A stretch of DNA of 64,000 bases, from positions 2,683,501-2,747,500 of the forward strand of contig AP017991.1 of NCBI GenBank assembly GCA_003609755.1, read 5' to 3'. Source of the stretch: Planktothrix agardhii NIES-204. Its GTDB lineage: Bacteria; Cyanobacteriota; Cyanobacteriia; Cyanobacteriales; Microcoleaceae. The translations under genes and the position numbers were made by a program. A model generated the notes under the pieces. It searched no databases, was not told the DNA's origin, and was given only the letters and a program-made list of their open reading frames with translations. This document shows positions 10,191-18,218 of this stretch, piece after piece (position 1 is the stretch's first letter; every line of letters begins with the position of its first letter).

Positions 10191-12026
10191 ATGACTGATT
10201 TTTTCCTAAAAACCTTATGGTGGATACCCTGCTACCCATTAATCGGAGCTTTGTTATCTACCCTCTGGTTTCCGTCTATTATTCGACGCACTGGCCCCCG
10301 TCCAGCCGGATATGTCAATATCATCACCACCCTATTCGCCTTTGTACATGAGCTATTCGTCCTCACAGAAATTTGGGGTCAACCTCCCCAACAGTTAATC
10401 ATTCCTTGGTTTAGTATCGTTGATCTCAATCTTGATATACCCCTAGAAATCTCTGTTGTCACCGTTGGAGCCACCTTAGTAATTACTGGTTTAAATCTTC
10501 TAGCCAAAATTTACTCCGTCGGTTACATGGAGATGGATTGGGGTTGGGCGCGTTTTTATTCCCTATTAGCCCTATTTGAAGCCGGGTTATGTGGGTTAGT
10601 CCTGTGTAATTCCCTGTTCTACAGTTACATTATTCTGGAAATCCTCACATTAGGAACTTATTTATTGGTAGGATTGTGGTTTAACCAACCCTTGGTTGTC
10701 ACCGGGGCTAGAGATGCCTTTTTAACCAAACGGGTCGGAGACTTATTCCTATTAATGGGAGTAGTCGCCCTATTTCCTCTCGCCGGAACTTGGAATTTTA
10801 CGGAGTTAGCCCAATGGTCACAAACCGCCCAAATTGACCCCCAAGTTGCCACCTTATTAGGGTTAGCATTACTGGCGGGGCCATTAGGGAAATGTGCCCA
10901 ATTTCCCCTGCATTTATGGTTAGATGAAGCTATGGAAGGCCCCATTCCTAGTACGATTTTACGCAGTTCTGTTGTCGTTGCCTCTGGAGCTTGGGTGTTA
11001 GTTAAAATGCAGCCCGTTTTAGCCTTGTCTCCTTTAGTAATGTCAACTATGGTATTTATTGGGTTAGCAACTTCCGTGGGAGCCAGTTGTATTGCTATTG
11101 CTCAAATTGATATAAAACGCGCCCTTTCCTATTCCGTCAGTGCCTATATGGGCATCACATTTATTGCCGTTGGAACCGGGCAAACTCAAGCGGCTCTTTC
11201 ACTATTATTTACCTATGCTTTACCGATGGCATTATTAGTTATGACCACCGGGGGAATTATTAGTAATAATATCACCCAAGATTTAACCCAATATGGCGGT
11301 TTATGGTCACGGCGTACGATATCGGGATTGTGTTTTTTAGTCGGAATTATCTCATTAGTTGCTGTTCCTCCATTCGGCGGTTTTTGGACGATATTAGAGT
11401 TAACACAAACCCTCTGGAACACTCAACCCGCCATTGCTCTTTGCCTGTTTTTAGTTAATGGTTTAACCGTCTTTAGTTTAACCCGTGAATTTGGGTTGAT
11501 TTTTACCGGAAAACCCAAACAAATGACTACCCGTTCCCCGGAAGTGTTATGGGCGATGGTATTACCTATGACAATTTTAGCGGGATTTTGTCTACATATT
11601 CCTTTGTTATTAAAACAATGGAATTTATTACCTGAATGGGAAACTATTAATCTAACAGTTGCAGGTTTATTAATCACCTCGACGGTTTTAGGATGGGGAC
11701 TCAGTGCTATGATTTATTGGAATAGTAATTGGCAAAAACCTGTTAAACTGCCATCTCAAGCAGTACAAGACTTCTTTGCTTACGATTTTTACACCGCAAA
11801 ACTGTATCGAGTCACGATTATTTTTGTAGTCGGATTAATCTCTAATACAATGTATTGGATTGACCGCTATATCGTTGATGGATTTGTCAACCTAGTGGGA
11901 ATAGCCACGATTTTTAGTGGACAAAGTTTGAAATACAACGTTTCTGGCCAAACCCAGTTTTATGCTTTGACAATTATCTTGGGAGTGACTTTACTTTTAG
12001 GATTTTTTACGCTGAATTTGTTTTAA
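10191..12026 (+). CDS. ndhF3: NDH-1 CO2-uptake complex subunit NdhF (F3/F4 type)
   Basis: A 611-residue antiporter-like membrane subunit of the specialised NDH-1MS complex that couples photosynthetic electron flow to CO2 hydration. Features are multiple membrane helices, the invariant GARDAFLTKRVGDL block, HLWLDEAMEGPIPSTILRSS, and the QIDIKRALSYSVSAYMG helix. This form is shorter than the respiratory NdhF1 and begins a gene set with ndhD and the CO2 hydration protein. I favour the inducible F3/D3/CupA set because a CupS-like gene lies nearby; F4/D4/CupB remains possible. Confidence 0.87.
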   Translation: MTDFFLKTLWWIPCYPLIGALLSTLWFPSIIRRTGPRPAGYVNIITTLFAFVHELFVLTEIWGQPPQQLIIPWFSIVDLNLDIPLEISVVTVGATLVITGLNLLAKIYSVGYMEMDWGWARFYSLLALFEAGLCGLVLCNSLFYSYIILEILTLGTYLLVGLWFNQPLVVTGARDAFLTKRVGDLFLLMGVVALFPLAGTWNFTELAQWSQTAQIDPQVATLLGLALLAGPLGKCAQFPLHLWLDEAMEGPIPSTILRSSVVVASGAWVLVKMQPVLALSPLVMSTMVFIGLATSVGASCIAIAQIDIKRALSYSVSAYMGITFIAVGTGQTQAALSLLFTYALPMALLVMTTGGIISNNITQDLTQYGGLWSRRTISGLCFLVGIISLVAVPPFGGFWTILELTQTLWNTQPAIALCLFLVNGLTVFSLTREFGLIFTGKPKQMTTRSPEVLWAMVLPMTILAGFCLHIPLLLKQWNLLPEWETINLTVAGLLITSTVLGWGLSAMIYWNSNWQKPVKLPSQAVQDFFAYDFYTAKLYRVTIIFVVGLISNTMYWIDRYIVDGFVNLVGIATIFSGQSLKYNVSGQTQFYALTIILGVTLLLGFFTLNLF

Positions 12027-12096
12027 AAGATTTCCCAATTTTCCTCTATAATCCATCCAAAGGATTAATTATCTATCAACTCAAGGTGAAAAAGTC

Positions 12097-12801
12097 ATGG
12101 ACAAAACTCAACAAAACTTAACCATCTCCCGTCGGAATTTATTAAAATTTGGTGCAGGAGTAGCGGGAACTGCGGCTTTAACTGCCGGGCTAGGAACAAA
12201 AGTAAGTTTGTTCAAACCTCAACCCGCCGTTGCCCAGAACAATATTACCCCCGAAGAAGCCTTAAAACAACTGTTAGAAGGAAACCAACGGTTTATCGAA
12301 AATAAACGAAAAAGTCCTAATCAAACCCTAACCAGAGTTCAAGAAGTGGCCCAGGGACAAGCCCCCTTTGCCGCTATTCTCAGTTGTGCAGATTCTCGAG
12401 TCCCATCGGAAATTATTTTTGACCGAGGTTTTGGAGATTTATTCGTAGTTAGAAATGCTGGAAATATTGCTACTCCAGAAGAAATTGGTAGTCTTGAATT
12501 TGGAACATTAGTGTTAGGGGCAAAAGTCCTTATGGTGATTGGGCATCAAAGTTGCGGGGCGGTCAAAGCCACTATTGCTGGCAATGCAGTTCCCGGTCAA
12601 ATTGCCAGTATTTTAGATGCAATTAAACCGGCGATCAAGCCTAATCAAACTTTAGAACAATCGACTATTGCTAATGTCAAATTAGGAATTAGTCGTTTAC
12701 AGGCTTCTCCAGTTATTTCTCAATTAATTAAAGACGGGAAATTAAAAATAGCAGGAGGCTACTATAACTTAGAAACCGGAATGATAAAAGTTGTGGCTTA
12801 A
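12097..12801 (+). CDS. Beta-class carbonic anhydrase with Tat signal
   Basis: A complete 234-residue beta-carbonic anhydrase (CO2 + H2O to HCO3- + H+). Predicted zinc ligands and dyad are Cys97, Asp99 and Arg101 in SCADSRVPSE, and His150 and Cys153 in GHQSCGAV. The N-terminus has a twin-arginine signal (SRRNLLKFGAG, residues 11-21) and a likely cleavage region near PAVAQ, so the enzyme should reach the thylakoid lumen or periplasm. It lies 70 bases after ndhF and 117 bases before ndhD, inside the CO2-uptake operon. It resembles the EcaB class, which has been linked to NDH-1 CO2-uptake complexes in Synechocystis; that link is from literature memory. Confidence 0.9.
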   Translation: MDKTQQNLTISRRNLLKFGAGVAGTAALTAGLGTKVSLFKPQPAVAQNNITPEEALKQLLEGNQRFIENKRKSPNQTLTRVQEVAQGQAPFAAILSCADSRVPSEIIFDRGFGDLFVVRNAGNIATPEEIGSLEFGTLVLGAKVLMVIGHQSCGAVKATIAGNAVPGQIASILDAIKPAIKPNQTLEQSTIANVKLGISRLQASPVISQLIKDGKLKIAGGYYNLETGMIKVVA

Positions 12802-12918
12802 AGCTACCTTCAGCAAGTTTATCAAACAAATCATCTAAAACTTTGATAAACTTGCTAATTTCTAAAAAATTGAGTCATTGGTTAACTTAAATATCCCTAT
12901 TCTTCCCAACCTAAACTT

Positions 12919-14409
12919 ATGTTGAGTGCTTTAATTATTATTCCAGTTTTGGCAGTTCTATTAATTGGACTCTTACCTAAACAATTGTCGGCTTCTCAAG
13001 TTCGTTCCATTGCTTTAGCAATCACAGGTGTGATTTTAATTTGGACAATAAAACTCAGCTTTGATTTTGATTTAACCAATCCTAATTTCCAATTGCAAGA
13101 ATATTTAGCTTGGATTCCCCAATTAGGACTATCCTATAGTTTAGGAATAGATGGTTTATCCTTTCCCTTAATCGGTTTAAGCGGGGTTTTAACCTTTATT
13201 GTCATTGCCAGTAGTCACAAAAATTTGGAGCGTCCTCGCCTCTATTACGCCATGATTTTATTGGTAAATGCGGCAATTGCTGGAGCCTTTTTATCTCAAA
13301 ACTTACTCCTGTTTGTTTTATTCTATGAATTAGAATTAATCCCCATTTATCTTTTAATTAGCATCTGGGGTAGCGAAAAACGTGCCTATGCAGGGATGAA
13401 ATTTCTGATTTATACCGCCCTTTCTGGGATTCTAATTCTAGCCGGATTTTTAGGTATGGCGTGGTTAAGTGATGCCGGAAGTTTTGATTATTCTGCCATT
13501 CAAACTCAGAACTTTGAATTAACGACTCAGTTAATTTTACTCACGGTTTTACTATTAGGATTTGGGATCAAAATTCCCCTAGTTCCCCTGCATACTTGGT
13601 TACCCGATGCCTATGTCGAATCTTCTCCCCCCGTGACAATTTTATTAGGAGGAATTTTAGCAAAATTAGGAGCCTATGGTTTAATTCGTTTTGGTTTACA
13701 ACTGTTTCCTGAAGCTTGGCATATTGTTAGTCCTACCCTAGCAACAATTGGGGTAATTAGTGTGTTATATGGAGCCTTAACCGCTATTGCTCAACAGGAT
13801 ATTAAACGCATGGTAGCCTATAGTTCTATCGGCCACATGGGTTATATTTTAGTGGCGGCTGCTGCTGCGAATGAATTAAGTTTAATTGGGGCAATTGCTC
13901 AAATGGTAGCCCACGGTTTAATCCTTGCCATTCTATTTCAATTAGTCGGAATTGTAGAAGAAAAAGTCGGAACCAGGGACTTAAATATTCTCAATGGTTT
14001 AATGAACCCAGTTCGCGGTTTACCCCTAACCAGTGCTTTATTAATTATGGCAGGAATGGCGAGTGCTGGCATCCCTGGTTTAGTGGGATTTGTCGCCGAG
14101 TTTCCCGTCTTTCAAGGCACATTTTCGGTCTTCCCAATTCACAGTTTATTGTGTATTATTGCCTCCGGTTTAACGGCCGTTTATTTCGTGATTCTCCTCA
14201 ACCGAACTTGTTTTGGTAAACTGGATAATAAATTAGCTTATTATCCCAAAGTTACCTTTTCAGAACAAGCTCCCGCATTGATTTTAGCCGCGTTTATTTT
14301 CATTCTCGGTATACAACCTACTTGGTTATTTCGATGGATGGAACCCACCGCCCAAGCCATGGTTATTGCCTTAAATCAATCGGTTCCTACCCAAATCGCT
14401 ATTAAATAA
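12919..14409 (+). CDS. ndhD3: NDH-1 CO2-uptake complex subunit NdhD (D3/D4 type)
   Basis: A 496-residue NuoM/MrpD-like proton-translocating subunit with about 14 membrane helices. Conserved features are the Glu of LLFVLFYELELIPIYLLI, the PLVPLHTWLPDAYVESSPP loop, and the QQDIKRMVAYSSIGHMG helix. It works with NdhF and the CO2 hydration protein in the NDH-1MS complex on the thylakoid membrane. The subtype (D3 or D4) is assigned only by context. Confidence 0.87.
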   Translation: MLSALIIIPVLAVLLIGLLPKQLSASQVRSIALAITGVILIWTIKLSFDFDLTNPNFQLQEYLAWIPQLGLSYSLGIDGLSFPLIGLSGVLTFIVIASSHKNLERPRLYYAMILLVNAAIAGAFLSQNLLLFVLFYELELIPIYLLISIWGSEKRAYAGMKFLIYTALSGILILAGFLGMAWLSDAGSFDYSAIQTQNFELTTQLILLTVLLLGFGIKIPLVPLHTWLPDAYVESSPPVTILLGGILAKLGAYGLIRFGLQLFPEAWHIVSPTLATIGVISVLYGALTAIAQQDIKRMVAYSSIGHMGYILVAAAAANELSLIGAIAQMVAHGLILAILFQLVGIVEEKVGTRDLNILNGLMNPVRGLPLTSALLIMAGMASAGIPGLVGFVAEFPVFQGTFSVFPIHSLLCIIASGLTAVYFVILLNRTCFGKLDNKLAYYPKVTFSEQAPALILAAFIFILGIQPTWLFRWMEPTAQAMVIALNQSVPTQIAIK

Positions 14410-14417
14410 TAAACCCG

Positions 14418-14475
14418 TAGGGGCGGGTTCAAATAAATCTTTCTGAACCCACTATCAACCCAACTAAACCCGCCC
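14418..14475 (+). repeat. GTAGGGGCGGGTTC hairpin repeat, copy 1
   Basis: GTAGGGGCGGGTTC near the start and AACCCGCCC at the end are inverted relative to each other, forming a hairpin between ndhD and the CO2 hydration gene. Related copies lie at 26253-26320 and 45163-45233. It could act as an intra-operon attenuator or RNA-processing site, but nothing here proves that. Confidence 0.65.
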
Positions 14476-14516
14476 TATATCCCAATTTTTAACAACAATT
14501 AAAACCAGGAAAAATT

Positions 14517-15809
14517 ATGACAACAGCAACTTTATCTCAAACAAAGTTACCCCCATCAACCCATGAATTTTCCCAGATTATTCACCGCTTAGAAGCCGGG
14601 GGAGCAATGTTACCCGATACCCCAGAAAACTTAATGCAAATTATCGGGATTTATAAAGCCTATGCAGTACCCATGGATTTCTATTGGCGGGATTTACTTT
14701 ATATTGCAGAACAGGTGTTTTTAAATCCTTTACCATTTTTAAAATACTTCATTCCTCAAGAATATTTAGATTTGCATAATCATTATGCTGGCGATGATGC
14801 TGATTTAAGAGTTTGGCGAGGAGAAGCAACAGCACACCCGGAATTATTAGCCTTTATAGAAAAGGGTGAAACCACAAAAATGCCAAAATTATTGCATCAT
14901 TTATGGCATGATCGGGTGAATATGGAATTTGCAGAAGCTTGTATGCAAGCCATGTTTTGGCATCGAGATATGGGAGGACAATTTGATCCATATTTAGATA
15001 CCGATGAATATAAAACTAATGCCGATAAAGCTATTAAAGCCTATTTTAAGAAAAATCCAATGATGATGGGATTATATAAACTATTCCCTGATTTATTCTT
15101 AGAACAGGTCAAAATGATGTCCTATTATAGTAATTTAGGACTATTCTGGGAAGTGATGGCGCCTGTGTTTTTTGAAATGAGTGATCTCTATGATGAAGGC
15201 AAAATTAGCAGTGTTCCTGAAGCAATGAATTTTCTGGTTAATGGGATTTTTGCTATTGCAGGACGCCCGATTTATCATCATGTTTATATTGATGGGGAAT
15301 GTTATGAAATTATCCCCAAATCTAAGGGGTTTATGTGGTTATATGAGGCGGCATTACCCTACGTTGAAGCCGTGTTTTATCGGACGTCTCCCTTCCGAGG
15401 AACTAAATCCTATAATGCTCAAGCCCAGCAAGTTCCTGATGATCAAAATGATTTCCATTATGGGATTCTTTATGCTGATATTTTTCCCGTTGGGACAGCC
15501 GGAATTCCTCCCACATTATTAATGCAAGATATGTTACATTTCTTGCCTAATTATTTAGTCGAATATTACCAAAAACATTGTCGAGGAGAGGATGATATGT
15601 TGATTCAGTTGGCGAATAGTTTCCAACGGTCAATGTATTGTGTCACTTCTGCGGTTATTCAAGCATTACGCACGGCTTTACTGTATCCTTTAGATGATCA
15701 AAATCCTAAACATTTGATCGCAAATCGTCAATTTTTTGAATCTCAATTAGATCGTTTTAAACGTCCTGAAGCACGATTAAGAGATATTCAATGCTCTGAT
15801 TATCGTTAA
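14517..15809 (+). CDS. cupA: CO2 hydration protein (CupA/CupB, ChpY/ChpX family)
   Basis: A 430-residue cyanobacteria-specific protein that docks on the distal NdhF/NdhD arm of NDH-1 and catalyses vectorial CO2 to bicarbonate conversion in the cytoplasm. Family hallmarks seen include LPDTPENLMQIIG, LLHHLWHDRVNMEFAEACMQ, SYNAQAQQVP, PPTLLMQDMLHFLP and the C-terminal RPEARLRDIQ. His and Asp-rich stretches could bind the metal. Preceded by AAAACCAGGAAAAATT as a ribosome site. Assignment to CupA rather than CupB rests on the nearby CupS-like gene and is not certain. Confidence 0.85.
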   Translation: MTTATLSQTKLPPSTHEFSQIIHRLEAGGAMLPDTPENLMQIIGIYKAYAVPMDFYWRDLLYIAEQVFLNPLPFLKYFIPQEYLDLHNHYAGDDADLRVWRGEATAHPELLAFIEKGETTKMPKLLHHLWHDRVNMEFAEACMQAMFWHRDMGGQFDPYLDTDEYKTNADKAIKAYFKKNPMMMGLYKLFPDLFLEQVKMMSYYSNLGLFWEVMAPVFFEMSDLYDEGKISSVPEAMNFLVNGIFAIAGRPIYHHVYIDGECYEIIPKSKGFMWLYEAALPYVEAVFYRTSPFRGTKSYNAQAQQVPDDQNDFHYGILYADIFPVGTAGIPPTLLMQDMLHFLPNYLVEYYQKHCRGEDDMLIQLANSFQRSMYCVTSAVIQALRTALLYPLDDQNPKHLIANRQFFESQLDRFKRPEARLRDIQCSDYR

Positions 15810-15844: not shown

Positions 15845-16501
15845 TTATCCGATTAAATTTTCTACACCCTCAATTCCTAAAGTTGCTTGTTCGATAATTC
15901 TTCTGTATTGTAATCGCCATTGTAGAGCGTTTGAAATGGTTAAATAACCCAGTTCAGGGGGGTGATTTATAATTCTTTCTGCTAACAGTTGTCGTCCAAT
16001 TTCATCAACGGGTAAATTACGCTCTTCTAAAAAAGCAATAACATCATCTAAATTTCCTTGACGACGCAGAATTTCCCTTAAACCATAGGTTGTTTGATAA
16101 TCTCCTGTTTGATCTTTATGCACAAAAACAGCGTTTTTAAAAACTAACCGACTTGCTCTTAAAATATCTTGATCAATTTTTTCATAGACTAAGACTAAAA
16201 GATGATATCCTAACCCATATATTTTTTGACTCGCATCTCGAAAAGGACAAGAAGATTGAGGTTGACAAATGGATGTTACCTTCAAATCAACTTGTTGTTC
16301 TGGAAAATCAATACCACTAGCAGCACTTCCAGGAGTGTAAATATATCTGGCTTTCAAATATTGATTAAAAACTTGTTCAACATAAGTACCTACCGCTTTT
16401 CCATCTGTGATTCCATATAAATCAGGAATATCTTTTGAACTCAATATCTGAGCAAATTTTCCTGCTTCGTTTTTTAGTAATGATACCGTTAATTGTTCCA
16501 T
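15845..16501 (-). CDS. Probable type II restriction endonuclease, 218 aa
   Basis: The gene lies 13 bases downstream of a cytosine-5 DNA methyltransferase in the same orientation, the usual layout of a type II restriction-modification system. A PD-(D/E)XK-like core can be proposed from GIDFPEQQVDLKVTS (Asp, then Asp-x-Lys after a short strand, about residues 64-76). The protein has no signal peptide or membrane segment. The recognition sequence is not predictable. It appears intact, with no stops or frameshifts, so the system may be active. Confidence 0.65.
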   Translation of the reverse strand: MEQLTVSLLKNEAGKFAQILSSKDIPDLYGITDGKAVGTYVEQVFNQYLKARYIYTPGSAASGIDFPEQQVDLKVTSICQPQSSCPFRDASQKIYGLGYHLLVLVYEKIDQDILRASRLVFKNAVFVHKDQTGDYQTTYGLREILRRQGNLDDVIAFLEERNLPVDEIGRQLLAERIINHPPELGYLTISNALQWRLQYRRIIEQATLGIEGVENLIG

Positions 16502-16514
16502 AAAATAGATATTT

Positions 16515-17687
16515 TTAATTAAATAAAGTTAGTTGTTTATATTTCTTAGGCGGAATTGTTATATTTTTTTGTCCAATTCTCTGACAAATCCATTCAATAC
16601 AAATGGGGACAACAGCATTTCCAAATAAAGCATATTGATCGTAAATTTTAGCGACTCGACACCAAGTGTCAGGAAAACCCATTAAACGGGCATATTCTAT
16701 CGGCGTTAATCGTCTAAACTTATGATCAATTTGATAGCGTTCATAATGTCTGGAAGTGGATGCGGTCAAAGTAGAAGCAACTCCATTAACACCAAAAATA
16801 GTATACCCTAACCTTGCACCTCCCTCTTGATTATATAAAATTTCTACGCCATTATAATAGCGGTTGACTGCTTTACTGTGTTTAATTCGTTCTAACGTAT
16901 CTGTGGTAAAATCAAATTGAGGCTCAACTTCTGATTCAGATTGAAGAATATCTTTTAATCGGGTAGGGGGATAGATATCAGGAAATGGGGGCAGGGATTG
17001 ACTATACATTTTATTTTGATAAGCAATTCCCCAAGGATAGTTTTTAATCTTTAAATCTAAAATAGGAGATAAATATTTCTCGATATTCTCTAAATCAAAA
17101 TTCAAGTATTCAGTCTCACTTTGATTTAAAAAGATTAAATTATCTTCTAAGTTTATCCGGTTTAAATCAAATTTACAACGAGTTCCAAAAATAAAAATCC
17201 GCTCACGATTTTGAGAAATACCAAAATTAATTGGACTGATAATTCGCCATTCAATAAAATAATTAAGAGACGCTAAAGCATTTAAAATTACTTTAAAATG
17301 GTGTCCCTGTTCCATTGTTAAAATACGTTTGACATTCTCTAATAAAAAATACTCTGGTTTTTTCGTATCTATAATTTCTATAATTCGTTCAAATAGGGTT
17401 CCGCGAACTTGATCTCGAATTCCTAATTTTTTACCTGCGGAACTAAAAGGTTGGCAGGGAAATCCTGCGGTTAATAAATCATGGTCAGGAATATCCGATA
17501 TATTGATAGTTTGAATATCTCCTAATACAATTGAATTTTTACCGAAATTACTCTCATAAACTTGACCACATAATTCATTGATATCATTAGCCCAAATCGT
17601 TTGAATTTGACTAGCTTCTAACCCCAAACGAAAACCACCAATTCCAGCAAATAATTCAACCGCCGTCCGTTTTTTAAATTGACTCAA
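16515..17687 (-). CDS. DNA (cytosine-5-)-methyltransferase, type II
   Basis: The m5C methyltransferase motifs are present in order: I (VELFAGIGGFRLGLE), IV (GFPCQPFSSAGKK, with the catalytic Cys), VI (LLENV), VIII (NRERIFIFG) and X (YALFGNAVVPICIEW). The target-recognition region lies between VIII and IX. The open frame extends upstream to 17771, but that part covers a perfect-looking hairpin. I prefer the TTG at 17687, preceded at the right distance by AGGAGAAC, giving 390 residues. Pairs with the endonuclease gene just downstream. Confidence 0.88.
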   Translation of the reverse strand: MSQFKKRTAVELFAGIGGFRLGLEASQIQTIWANDINELCGQVYESNFGKNSIVLGDIQTINISDIPDHDLLTAGFPCQPFSSAGKKLGIRDQVRGTLFERIIEIIDTKKPEYFLLENVKRILTMEQGHHFKVILNALASLNYFIEWRIISPINFGISQNRERIFIFGTRCKFDLNRINLEDNLIFLNQSETEYLNFDLENIEKYLSPILDLKIKNYPWGIAYQNKMYSQSLPPFPDIYPPTRLKDILQSESEVEPQFDFTTDTLERIKHSKAVNRYYNGVEILYNQEGGARLGYTIFGVNGVASTLTASTSRHYERYQIDHKFRRLTPIEYARLMGFPDTWCRVAKIYDQYALFGNAVVPICIEWICQRIGQKNITIPPKKYKQLTLFN

Positions 17688-17744
17688 ATTTTGTTCTCCT
17701 TGATTAATAATTAATAGTCTGGATAGAGATTTTTTTGTTAAATT

Positions 17745-17783
17745 AATCACCCTAGAGTTGGGATAACCCAACCTAGGGTGATT
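17745..17783. terminator. Bidirectional hairpin between methyltransferase and fasciclin genes
   Basis: AATCACCCTAGAGTTGGG and CCCAACCTAGGGTGATT pair across an ATAA loop with one bulged base. T-runs follow on the plus strand. It sits 34 bases past the stop of the leftward fasciclin gene and fits a terminator that separates it from the restriction-modification pair. Confidence 0.7.
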
Positions 17784-17816: not shown

Positions 17817-18218
17817 TTAACCCATTAAAATCACCGTATCAATAACATGAATAATGCCATTATCCGCTTCAATATCGGGAGCGAGTACCGTGGCATTTTT
17901 AACTTCAAAACCATCGGAACAGTTAATCGGAATTGGTGAACCTTCCAAAGAAGTAACAGAACCTAATTTTTCTAAATCGGCTTTTGTTAGTTTACCCAAA
18001 ACAACATGAAATTTTAGAATTCTAGCTAACTGCGGTGGATTTTGAACTAAGGTTTGTACTGTTCCAGGGGGAAGTTTTGCAAACGCTTCGTCATTGGGTG
18101 CAAACACAGTAAAAGGGCCAGGACTTTTTAATGCTTCCACTAAACCTGCGGCTTGAACAGCGGCTACCAGGGTTGTAAATGAACCCGCACTTACAGCAAT
18201 ATCAACAATATCAGCCAT
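17817..18218 (-). CDS. Fasciclin-domain protein, CupS-like, 133 aa
   Basis: A single FAS1 domain without a signal peptide: [14 protein letters not shown] (H1 box) and [13 protein letters not shown] (H2 box) are clear. CupS, a subunit of the inducible NDH-1MS CO2-uptake complex, is a small soluble fasciclin-fold protein of about this length encoded right after cupA in Synechocystis. Here the gene lies 2 kb from the CO2 hydration gene on the opposite strand, with a restriction-modification pair between. The CupS identification is likely but not certain, since cyanobacteria carry other small FAS1 proteins. Confidence 0.8.

What the first reader, a model, noticed from the sequence alone, without database searches (positions are those of the whole stretch)
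10191..15809. A Tat-exported beta-carbonic anhydrase inside an NDH-1 CO2-uptake operon
Seen: ndhF, beta-carbonic anhydrase (with Cys/Asp/Arg/His/Cys site and twin-arginine signal), ndhD and the CO2 hydration gene run in one direction with gaps of 70, 117 and 107 bases. Known: NDH-1MS hydrates CO2 on the cytoplasmic side via CupA or CupB, and EcaB of Synechocystis has been linked to such complexes. Inferred: co-expression of a lumenal or periplasmic enzyme with the vectorial hydration complex, which could feed CO2 to the membrane or dissipate HCO3-. The operon placement ties the two functionally.
Basis: partly seen in the sequence, partly recalled or inferred. Interest (0 to 1): 0.7.

Follow-up and report, generated by a model that had tools for sequence, protein, structure and literature searches.

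The report
Exported carbonic anhydrase in CO2-uptake operon
In this cyanobacterium, and in a scattering of others, the genes for the light-driven CO2-trapping complex have a second, apparently exported CO2-converting enzyme wedged between them, which suggests that the complex may be served from both sides of its membrane and makes that idea testable.

Summary
The window is probably Planktothrix. The arrangement is real and recurrent but patchy: the CA lies between ndhF3 and ndhD3 in 10 of 10 genomes of the genus (broken in one), in 18 of 290 sampled class genomes, and in Nostoc, Microcoleus, Oscillatoria, Microcystis and others. The 47 distinct operon-borne CAs tested all keep a twin arginine and the active-site motifs. 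Synechocystis-genus CAs that I take to be EcaB (reported to contact CupA/CupB) form one supported clade with operon-borne CAs of Microcystis and another Synechocystis species, within the larger family that holds the window's CA. Other placements (cupB-sbtA-sbtB-CA-ndhF3-ndhD3-cupA-CA; ndhF4-ndhD4-cupB-CA) strengthen the functional link. My reading: an EcaB-family enzyme exported to the thylakoid lumen that works with NDH-1MS, most likely equilibrating HCO3-/CO2 at the lumenal mouth of the proposed NdhF3 CO2 channel. Export side, direction and co-transcription are untested; a conserved stem-loop follows the CA. The searches I ran showed no paper describing this gene position.

The parts
10191..12026 (+). 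ndhF3: distal membrane subunit of NDH-1MS, carries the proposed CO2 channel
   Evidence: TIGR01960 945.8 bits; best solved relative 6tjv chain F, 707.7 bits
12097..12801 (+). beta-carbonic anhydrase of the EcaB kind, 234 aa
   Evidence: PF00484 123.8 bits; tree; AlphaFold2 model mean pLDDT 87.1, 93-98 in ten-residue blocks from residue 51 on; best fold match 2a5v, Rv3588c, TM 0.77/0.89, 35% identity
12097..12234 (+). Tat-type signal peptide (SRRNLLK, hydrophobic stretch, AVA before Q47); cleavage site read by eye
   Evidence: PF10518 23.8 bits; RR plus hydrophobic stretch in 47 of 47 distinct operon-borne CAs
12385..12555 (+). active-site codons C97, D99, R101, H150, C153
   Evidence: invariant in 24 of 24 and 29 of 29 rows
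12812..12856 (+). stem-loop directly after the CA stop codon: 15-bp perfect stem, 15-nt loop
   Evidence: z -4.63, 0 of 200 shuffles as stable; 11-bp core of the stem kept in 10 of 10 Planktothrix genomes, with one A-to-G change that leaves a G-U pair in two
12919..14409 (+). ndhD3: proton-pumping membrane subunit
   Evidence: NF005611 836.4 bits over its cut-off 764; NF005060 scores 708.6, under its cut-off 747; D3 rather than D4 is inferred from these two models and from its place
14517..15809 (+). cupA (chpY): cytoplasmic CO2 hydration subunit
   Evidence: TIGR01964 784.5 bits, PF10216 555.2 bits
17817..18218 (-). cupS: fasciclin-fold cap of CupA, here separated from cupA by an unknown ORF and a DNA methylase gene on the opposite strand
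   Evidence: best solved relatives 6tjv chain Q (191.3 bits) and 2mxa CupS (191.0 bits)

Best explanation
The gene is an EcaB-family beta-carbonic anhydrase that belongs functionally to the NDH-1MS CO2-uptake complex. It is folded in the cytoplasm, exported by the Tat system (inferred from the signal) and acts mainly in the thylakoid lumen (inferred). There it speeds HCO3- + H+ <-> CO2 next to NdhF3, so that HCO3- that has leaked into the lumen becomes CO2, enters the proposed NdhF3 gas channel, is hydrated to HCO3- at CupA and released into the cytoplasm, while NdhD3 pumps the proton back to the lumen (all inferred). In short, a leak-recapture enzyme on the far side of the same machine. Shown here: gene content, synteny, signal, catalytic residues, membership in one family with EcaB-like CAs of Synechocystis, purifying selection. 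My confidence in the functional partnership alone is about 0.75; in the lumenal, dehydrating direction about 0.4.
For: Synteny ndhF3-CA-ndhD3 in 10 of 10 genomes of the genus (one copy broken), in 17 of 59 relatives (own genome counted) with an intact copy plus the broken one (DNA held for the best 30 hits only), in 18 of 290 class genomes, and in 17 of 80 named loci with ndhF3, CA, ndhD3 and cupA all in order, plus one cut by the contig end. Other placements with CO2-uptake genes: L187 cupB-sbtA-sbtB-CA-ndhF3-ndhD3-cupA-CA, L110 Chamaesiphon ndhF4-ndhD4-cupB-CA. RR plus hydrophobic stretch, C-x-D-S-R and GHxxCG in 47 of 47. Synechocystis-genus CAs group with operon-borne ones of Microcystis and Synechocystis, 100%. 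dN/dS 0.07-0.21 in eight comparisons within the genus. In PMC9283085 and PMC10096703 (passages) EcaB is reported thylakoid-associated, active, and interacting with CupA/B (they cite Sun et al. 2019, which I did not see). PMC6981117 (passages) models a non-polar tunnel in NdhF3 from the lumenal side; PMC13249358 (section 14) says biochemical evidence is still missing.
Against: 266 of 290 class genomes have an NdhF3/F4 hit but 18 have the CA in that place. Planktothrix G006 has only a broken copy and no other beta-CA hit, with ndhF3 and ndhD3 present, so the enzyme seems dispensable there. One of 5 Synechocystis-genus genomes has no such CA and three have it outside the operon. The Tat-type N-terminus is a property of the wider family (168 of 184 non-operonic relatives), so it says nothing special about the operon form. 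Some beta-CAs close below pH 8.3 (PMC5746736, passages), which would suit an acidic lumen badly; the nearest fold, Rv3588c, is one that I recall as pH-switched. CupA/B lie on the cytoplasmic side, so the reported EcaB contact is hard to square with a lumenal enzyme. No bestrophin-type HCO3- channel was found, but that search was uninformative because no control genome rang.
Confidence: 0.5

Rival explanations
1. Periplasmic enzyme: the CA acts at the cell envelope, converting external HCO3- to CO2 (or the reverse), and is placed in the operon only so that it is induced with CO2 uptake at low carbon.
For: Tat signals serve both membranes (general knowledge); PMC11360081 and PMC10096703 (passages) report Synechocystis EcaB first found in the periplasm, with a minor pool at the plasma membrane. 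In L187 one CA sits next to sbtA and a P-II (sbtB-like) gene; SbtA is a plasma-membrane HCO3- transporter.
Against: The same papers report that most EcaB is with thylakoids; the partner genes here are for thylakoid complexes.
Confidence: 0.25
2. Cytoplasm-facing assembly or activity partner of CupA/CupB, as the reported EcaB-CupA/B interaction suggests, with the twin-arginine stretch acting as a membrane anchor or not used.
For: Interaction with CupA/B reported for EcaB (PMC10096703 passages).
Against: RR plus hydrophobic stretch kept in 47 of 47 operon-borne CAs; CA expressed in the cytoplasm is reported to stop growth at very low CO2 (PMC6981117 introduction, passage).
Confidence: 0.1
3. Position without function: an old insertion carried along, co-regulated but not coupled to NDH-1MS.
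For: At least 9 gains or losses on an NdhF3 tree of 57 loci, no better clustered than many shuffles (76 of 500) (the sample is enriched for the CA); CA distances follow NdhF3 less closely (r 0.59) than NdhD3 does (r 0.88).
Against: Several different placements beside cupA, cupB, sbtB and ndhF3, and the biochemical EcaB link.
Confidence: 0.12
4. Not a CO2 enzyme: the beta-CA fold also holds COS and CS2 hydrolases.
For: Weak sequence matches to CS2 hydrolase and COS hydrolase structures, E 2e-5 and 6.5e-4.
Against: Far stronger matches to true CAs (2a5v, 114.3 bits), intact Asp-Arg dyad, CO2-gene context.
Confidence: 0.03

Closest known systems
EcaB (slr0051) of Synechocystis sp. PCC 6803
   Same: beta-class CA, Tat-type signal, thylakoid association and CupA/B contact reported (passages); the EcaB-like CAs of three Synechocystis-genus genomes form one clade with operon-borne CAs of Microcystis and Synechocystis, inside the family of the window's CA
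   Different: in those three genomes the gene lies outside the NDH-1MS operon (for L050 the neighbouring ORFs are other genes); in the window, and in Synechocystis-genus genome G268, it lies between ndhF3 and ndhD3
ndhF3-ndhD3-cupA-sll1735 (cupS) operon (NDH-1MS, NDH-1_3) of Synechocystis
   Same: same subunit genes in the same order (PMC5853218 passage)
   Different: CA inserted between ndhF3 and ndhD3; cupS displaced to 17817-18218 on the other strand behind an ORF and a methylase gene
CcaA, carboxysomal beta-CA
   Same: beta-CA class
   Different: far branch of the tree; no signal peptide seen by eye in the intact copy of the same species
Rv3588c beta-CA (2a5v, 1ym3)
   Same: nearest solved structure, 35% identity, TM 0.77/0.89
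   Different: the alignment starts at residue 9 of the chain, so no counterpart of the signal; no NDH context (recalled)
CAH3 of Chlamydomonas (lumenal alpha-CA; recalled, from no call)
   Same: would be the functional analogue: a lumenal CA that makes CO2 from HCO3-
   Different: different CA class; feeds Rubisco, not an NDH-1 complex

Membership tests
NDH-1MS (NDH-1_3) operon | NdhF3-type, NdhD3-type and CupA-type genes in order on one strand | tested here: met
   NdhD3 rather than NdhD4 inferred from NF005611 over NF005060
NDH-1MS (NDH-1_3) operon | CupS gene | tested here: met
   17817-18218 (-), best match to 6tjv chain Q and 2mxa; not adjacent to cupA
NDH-1MS (NDH-1_3) operon | low-CO2-induced single transcript | not testable with these tools
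   no expression data; internal stem-loop. A recalled NdhR motif is not clearly enriched in the window: 134 matches with up to 3 mismatches against 117.35 expected, 6 of 100 shuffles as high
EcaB family | beta-class CA with complete zinc site and Asp-Arg dyad | tested here: met
EcaB family | export signal of Tat type | tested here: met
   sequence evidence only
EcaB family | common descent with Synechocystis EcaB | tested here: inconclusive
   Synechocystis-genus CAs group with operon-borne ones of Microcystis and Synechocystis at 100%; the window's CA is in the same large family but not in that clade; slr0051 itself was not retrieved, and the genus is inferred from PsaB
EcaB family | thylakoid location, contact with CupA/CupB, CA activity | not testable with these tools
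   reported for Synechocystis EcaB only (passages)
CcaA (carboxysomal beta-CA) | falls with CcaA in a tree; no export signal | tested here: not met
   separate from the three CcaA-like rows, 100% on a very long branch; Tat-type signal present

The most novel reading that the evidence does not exclude
NDH-1MS is a two-sided CO2 machine: its operon encodes, besides CupA on the cytoplasmic face, a lumenal carbonic anhydrase that makes CO2 from leaked HCO3- with pumped protons and feeds the NdhF3 gas channel, giving a proton-driven HCO3- recapture cycle across the thylakoid membrane. This would be genetic support for the lumen-fed model, which the review I read says rests on structural data alone.
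Probability: 0.33. Interest if true: 0.82.

Novelty: new variant of a known kind. Interest (0 to 1): 0.6.

Why it matters
Whether NDH-1MS takes CO2 from the cytoplasm or from the lumen is open in the reviews I saw (PMC10096703 passages; PMC13249358 section 14). A recurrent, apparently exported CA inside the operon is an independent, genetic pointer to the far side of the membrane and gives a single-gene knock-out that can help decide it. It also gives EcaB-type enzymes, whose role is unsettled, a genomic home, and suggests a part that may be missing when cyanobacterial CO2 pumps are moved into other hosts.

Tried and rejected
CcaA identity: rejected, since the CcaA-like rows branch far away. 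NdhR/CcmR-like site upstream of ndhF3 using a motif recalled from memory (TCAATG-N10-ATCAAT): near the start only hits with 3 mismatches, and 134 in the window against 117.35 expected (6 of 100 shuffles as high), uninformative. Sigma-70 and terminator scans: near shuffle expectation (22 against 17.4; 6 against 6.8). Bestrophin-type HCO3- channel: no hit, but no control rang, so uninformative. Papers placing a CA between ndhF3 and ndhD3: none seen in the listings of searches (one returned nothing), nor in the passages read of PMC5472144, PMC9120777, PMC4419860, PMC11360081, PMC9283085, PMC10096703, PMC5853218, PMC9477826 and the section and passages of PMC13249358; the library lacks most subscription journals, Sandrini 2014 was not held and Sun 2019 was not tried, so absence from print is not shown. 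Counting the gene across the class was limited: one search printed 150 matches and said more were not listed; I held DNA for 148 of these (two, in G312 and G073, were not fetched). In the relatives sample only the best 30 hits had loci, so weaker or partial hits there were not placed. For the CA tree I gave 104 of 253 distinct CAs: all 47 operon-labelled, all 11 'near' and 46 of 195 others chosen by hand.
Full report
What is there. They are NdhF3, a beta-class carbonic anhydrase with a Tat-type signal, NdhD3 and CupA by curated models (D3 rather than D4 is inferred from two NCBIfam models). NdhF3 matches chain F of 6tjv at 707.7 bits, and a fasciclin protein at 17817-18218 on the other strand is CupS by its best matches, 6tjv chain Q and 2mxa, so the variable module of NDH-1MS lies within 8 kb. 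The genome is probably Planktothrix: a stretch of a second contig of the same assembly matches 13 plasmid records, 11 of them Planktothrix, though no record listed covers more than 26% of the query and several matches are insertion elements.

The enzyme. 234 residues; C97, D99, R101, H150, C153 are invariant in 24 of 24 and 29 of 29 rows. The N-terminus reads SRRNLLK, a hydrophobic stretch and AVA-Q; PF10518 scores 23.8 against a cut-off of 22.7. The model is confident from about residue 50 on (ten-residue blocks of 93-98 pLDDT) and matches Rv3588c best (TM 0.77/0.89, 35% identity). Among 47 distinct CAs labelled operon-borne (ndhF3 and ndhD3 both within 900 bases on the same strand; the first copies of tandem pairs fall under another label and are not counted), 47 carry RR plus a hydrophobic stretch, 47 the C-x-D-S-R core, 47 GHxxCG; a crude AxA test was met in 31. 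Of 184 non-operonic relatives with enough N-terminus (of 195), 168 also have RR plus a hydrophobic stretch, so export is a property of the family, not of the operon.

How widespread. In the genus, 10 of 10 genomes have the CA between ndhF3 and ndhD3; in G006 it is broken. In 59 relatives, own genome included, 17 have an intact copy in place plus G006 (DNA held for the best 30 hits). In 290 class genomes, 144 have a CA hit at 1e-25, 266 have a hit to the NdhF3 model, which also catches NdhF4, and 18 have ndhF3-CA-ndhD3 (148 of 150 printed matches examined, more were not printed). Among 80 named loci, 17 show ndhF3-CA-ndhD3-cupA, in Nostoc, Oscillatoria, Pelatocladus, Calothrix, Microcoleus, Limnofasciculus, Westiellopsis, Scytonema, Chlorogloea, Mastigocoleus, Laspinema, Microcystis, Anabaena and two records named only to order or family, and one (Dolichospermum) is cut by the contig end. 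Of the 30 NdhF loci fetched, 10 are NdhF3-like by identity; 2 of these 10 have the CA next to them and 8 do not. So the placement is recurrent but patchy.

Other placements. L187 (G077) reads cupB-sbtA-sbtB-CA-ndhF3-ndhD3-cupA-CA with cupS beyond on the other strand; SbtA and a P-II protein were confirmed by Pfam, the sbtB label is by position and cupB by 46% identity to CupA and the ChpXY model. L110 (Chamaesiphon MAG) reads ndhF4-ndhD4-cupB-CA; the NdhD4 call rests on NF005060 802.0 over NF005611 675.2 bits, CupB on 40% identity to CupA. In the 118 further regions fetched, 113 show none of these genes and no second CA within about 2.5 kb; the other five are L187, L205 (CA divergent upstream of ndhF3), L230 (CA divergent from an NdhF-like gene of 55% identity, about 1.6 kb away), and L173 and L175 (CA convergent with an NdhD-like gene of 41-42%).

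Descent. In a quick tree of 104 of 253 distinct rows operon-borne CAs are strongly clustered (13 changes, shuffled mean 34.6, 0 of 500 as low) but not one clade; some of the 13 changes come from the separate label of the tandem first copies. Three Synechocystis-genus CAs outside the operon (G041, G257, G338) form a 100% clade with the operon-borne CA of a fourth (G268) and of Microcystis; the window's CA lies elsewhere in the same family. The genus is inferred: PsaB of G257 and of G041 match chains of 4kt0/5oy0 closely, entries that I recall as Synechocystis PCC 6803. I take these CAs to be EcaB; slr0051 itself was not retrieved. NdhF3 of G257 is followed directly by ndhD3 (L062). An NdhF3 tree of 57 loci (46 with CA, enriched for it) needs 9 changes. 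Across 29 loci CA distances correlate with NdhF3 (r 0.59) and NdhD3 (0.48), less than those two with each other (0.88); 0 of 999 permutations reach any of these. This fits an old insertion, mostly inherited, often lost or moved, but repeated gains are not excluded.

Within the genus. Five of 10 genomes (G001, G002, G004, G007, G008) carry two CA genes in tandem (the second 58-62% identical to the window's CA); G005 keeps a relic of the second; G006 holds a frameshifted hybrid of both. dN/dS of the first copy against the window's is 0.07-0.21 in eight comparisons, 0.05-0.12 for NdhF3 and 0.06-0.12 for NdhD3. Right after the first CA's stop codon lies a stem-loop (12812-12856; z -4.63) whose stem core is kept in 10 of 10 genomes, followed by five or six T in four of them. 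It may stabilise ndhF3-CA mRNA or end part of the transcripts, so 'one operon' is a hypothesis.

Mechanism. Reviews describe EcaB as thylakoid-associated, active, and in contact with CupA/B (PMC10096703, PMC9283085, passages). The NDH-1MS structure paper proposes a non-polar CO2 tunnel in NdhF3 from the lumenal side (PMC6981117, passages), and a 2026 review says that this would mean rehydration of CO2 formed from HCO3- leaked into the acidic lumen, still without biochemical proof (PMC13249358, section 14). An exported CA made with NdhF3 and NdhD3 would suit that model. Shown: genes, order, signal, residues, family, selection. Inferred: lumen, direction, coupling. Against: apparently dispensable in G006, absent from or outside the operon in most sampled genomes, possible closure of beta-CAs at low pH (PMC5746736, passages), and the cytoplasmic position of CupA.

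Verdict. It matters because it makes the side from which NDH-1MS draws CO2 testable by one gene deletion.

Noticed in passing
G000:C1:4024383-4024697 (L002), outside the window: The carboxysomal-type CA gene ccaA of this strain is cut down to its C-terminal part, next to a P-II (SbtB-like, by eye) gene, while a same-species genome (G339, L303) has an SbtA-like ORF, two P-II-like ORFs (by eye) and an intact ccaA in a row. The operon-borne CA is therefore the only intact beta-CA hit in the window's genome.
   Followed up: partly
window 12802-12918: Conserved stem-loop directly after the first CA gene in 10 of 10 Planktothrix genomes, in four followed by a run of five or six T, like a terminator or attenuator.
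   Followed up: partly
L004, L005, L008, L009, L010 (Planktothrix relatives): Tandem pair of CA genes between ndhF3 and ndhD3; the second copy is absent, decayed or recombined in the other strains.
   Followed up: partly
L187 (G077:C15:11921-24550): A carbon-uptake supercluster: cupB-sbtA-sbtB-CA-ndhF3-ndhD3-cupA-CA, cupS opposite.
   Followed up: partly
window 15845-17771 (-): A C-5 cytosine DNA methylase gene and an ORF without Pfam match (perhaps its restriction partner) sit between cupA and cupS.
   Followed up: no
window 14410-14516: The ndhD3-cupA gap holds a GC-rich inverted repeat (GGGGCGGGTT...AACCCGCCC) that folds moderately well, z -2.40.
   Followed up: no
L112, L113, L114, L136, L139, L142, L145: Relatives of this CA family occur in Gemmatimonadota and Planctomycetota MAGs; these seven rows group together (fork support 89) inside the otherwise mostly cyanobacterial tree.
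   Followed up: no
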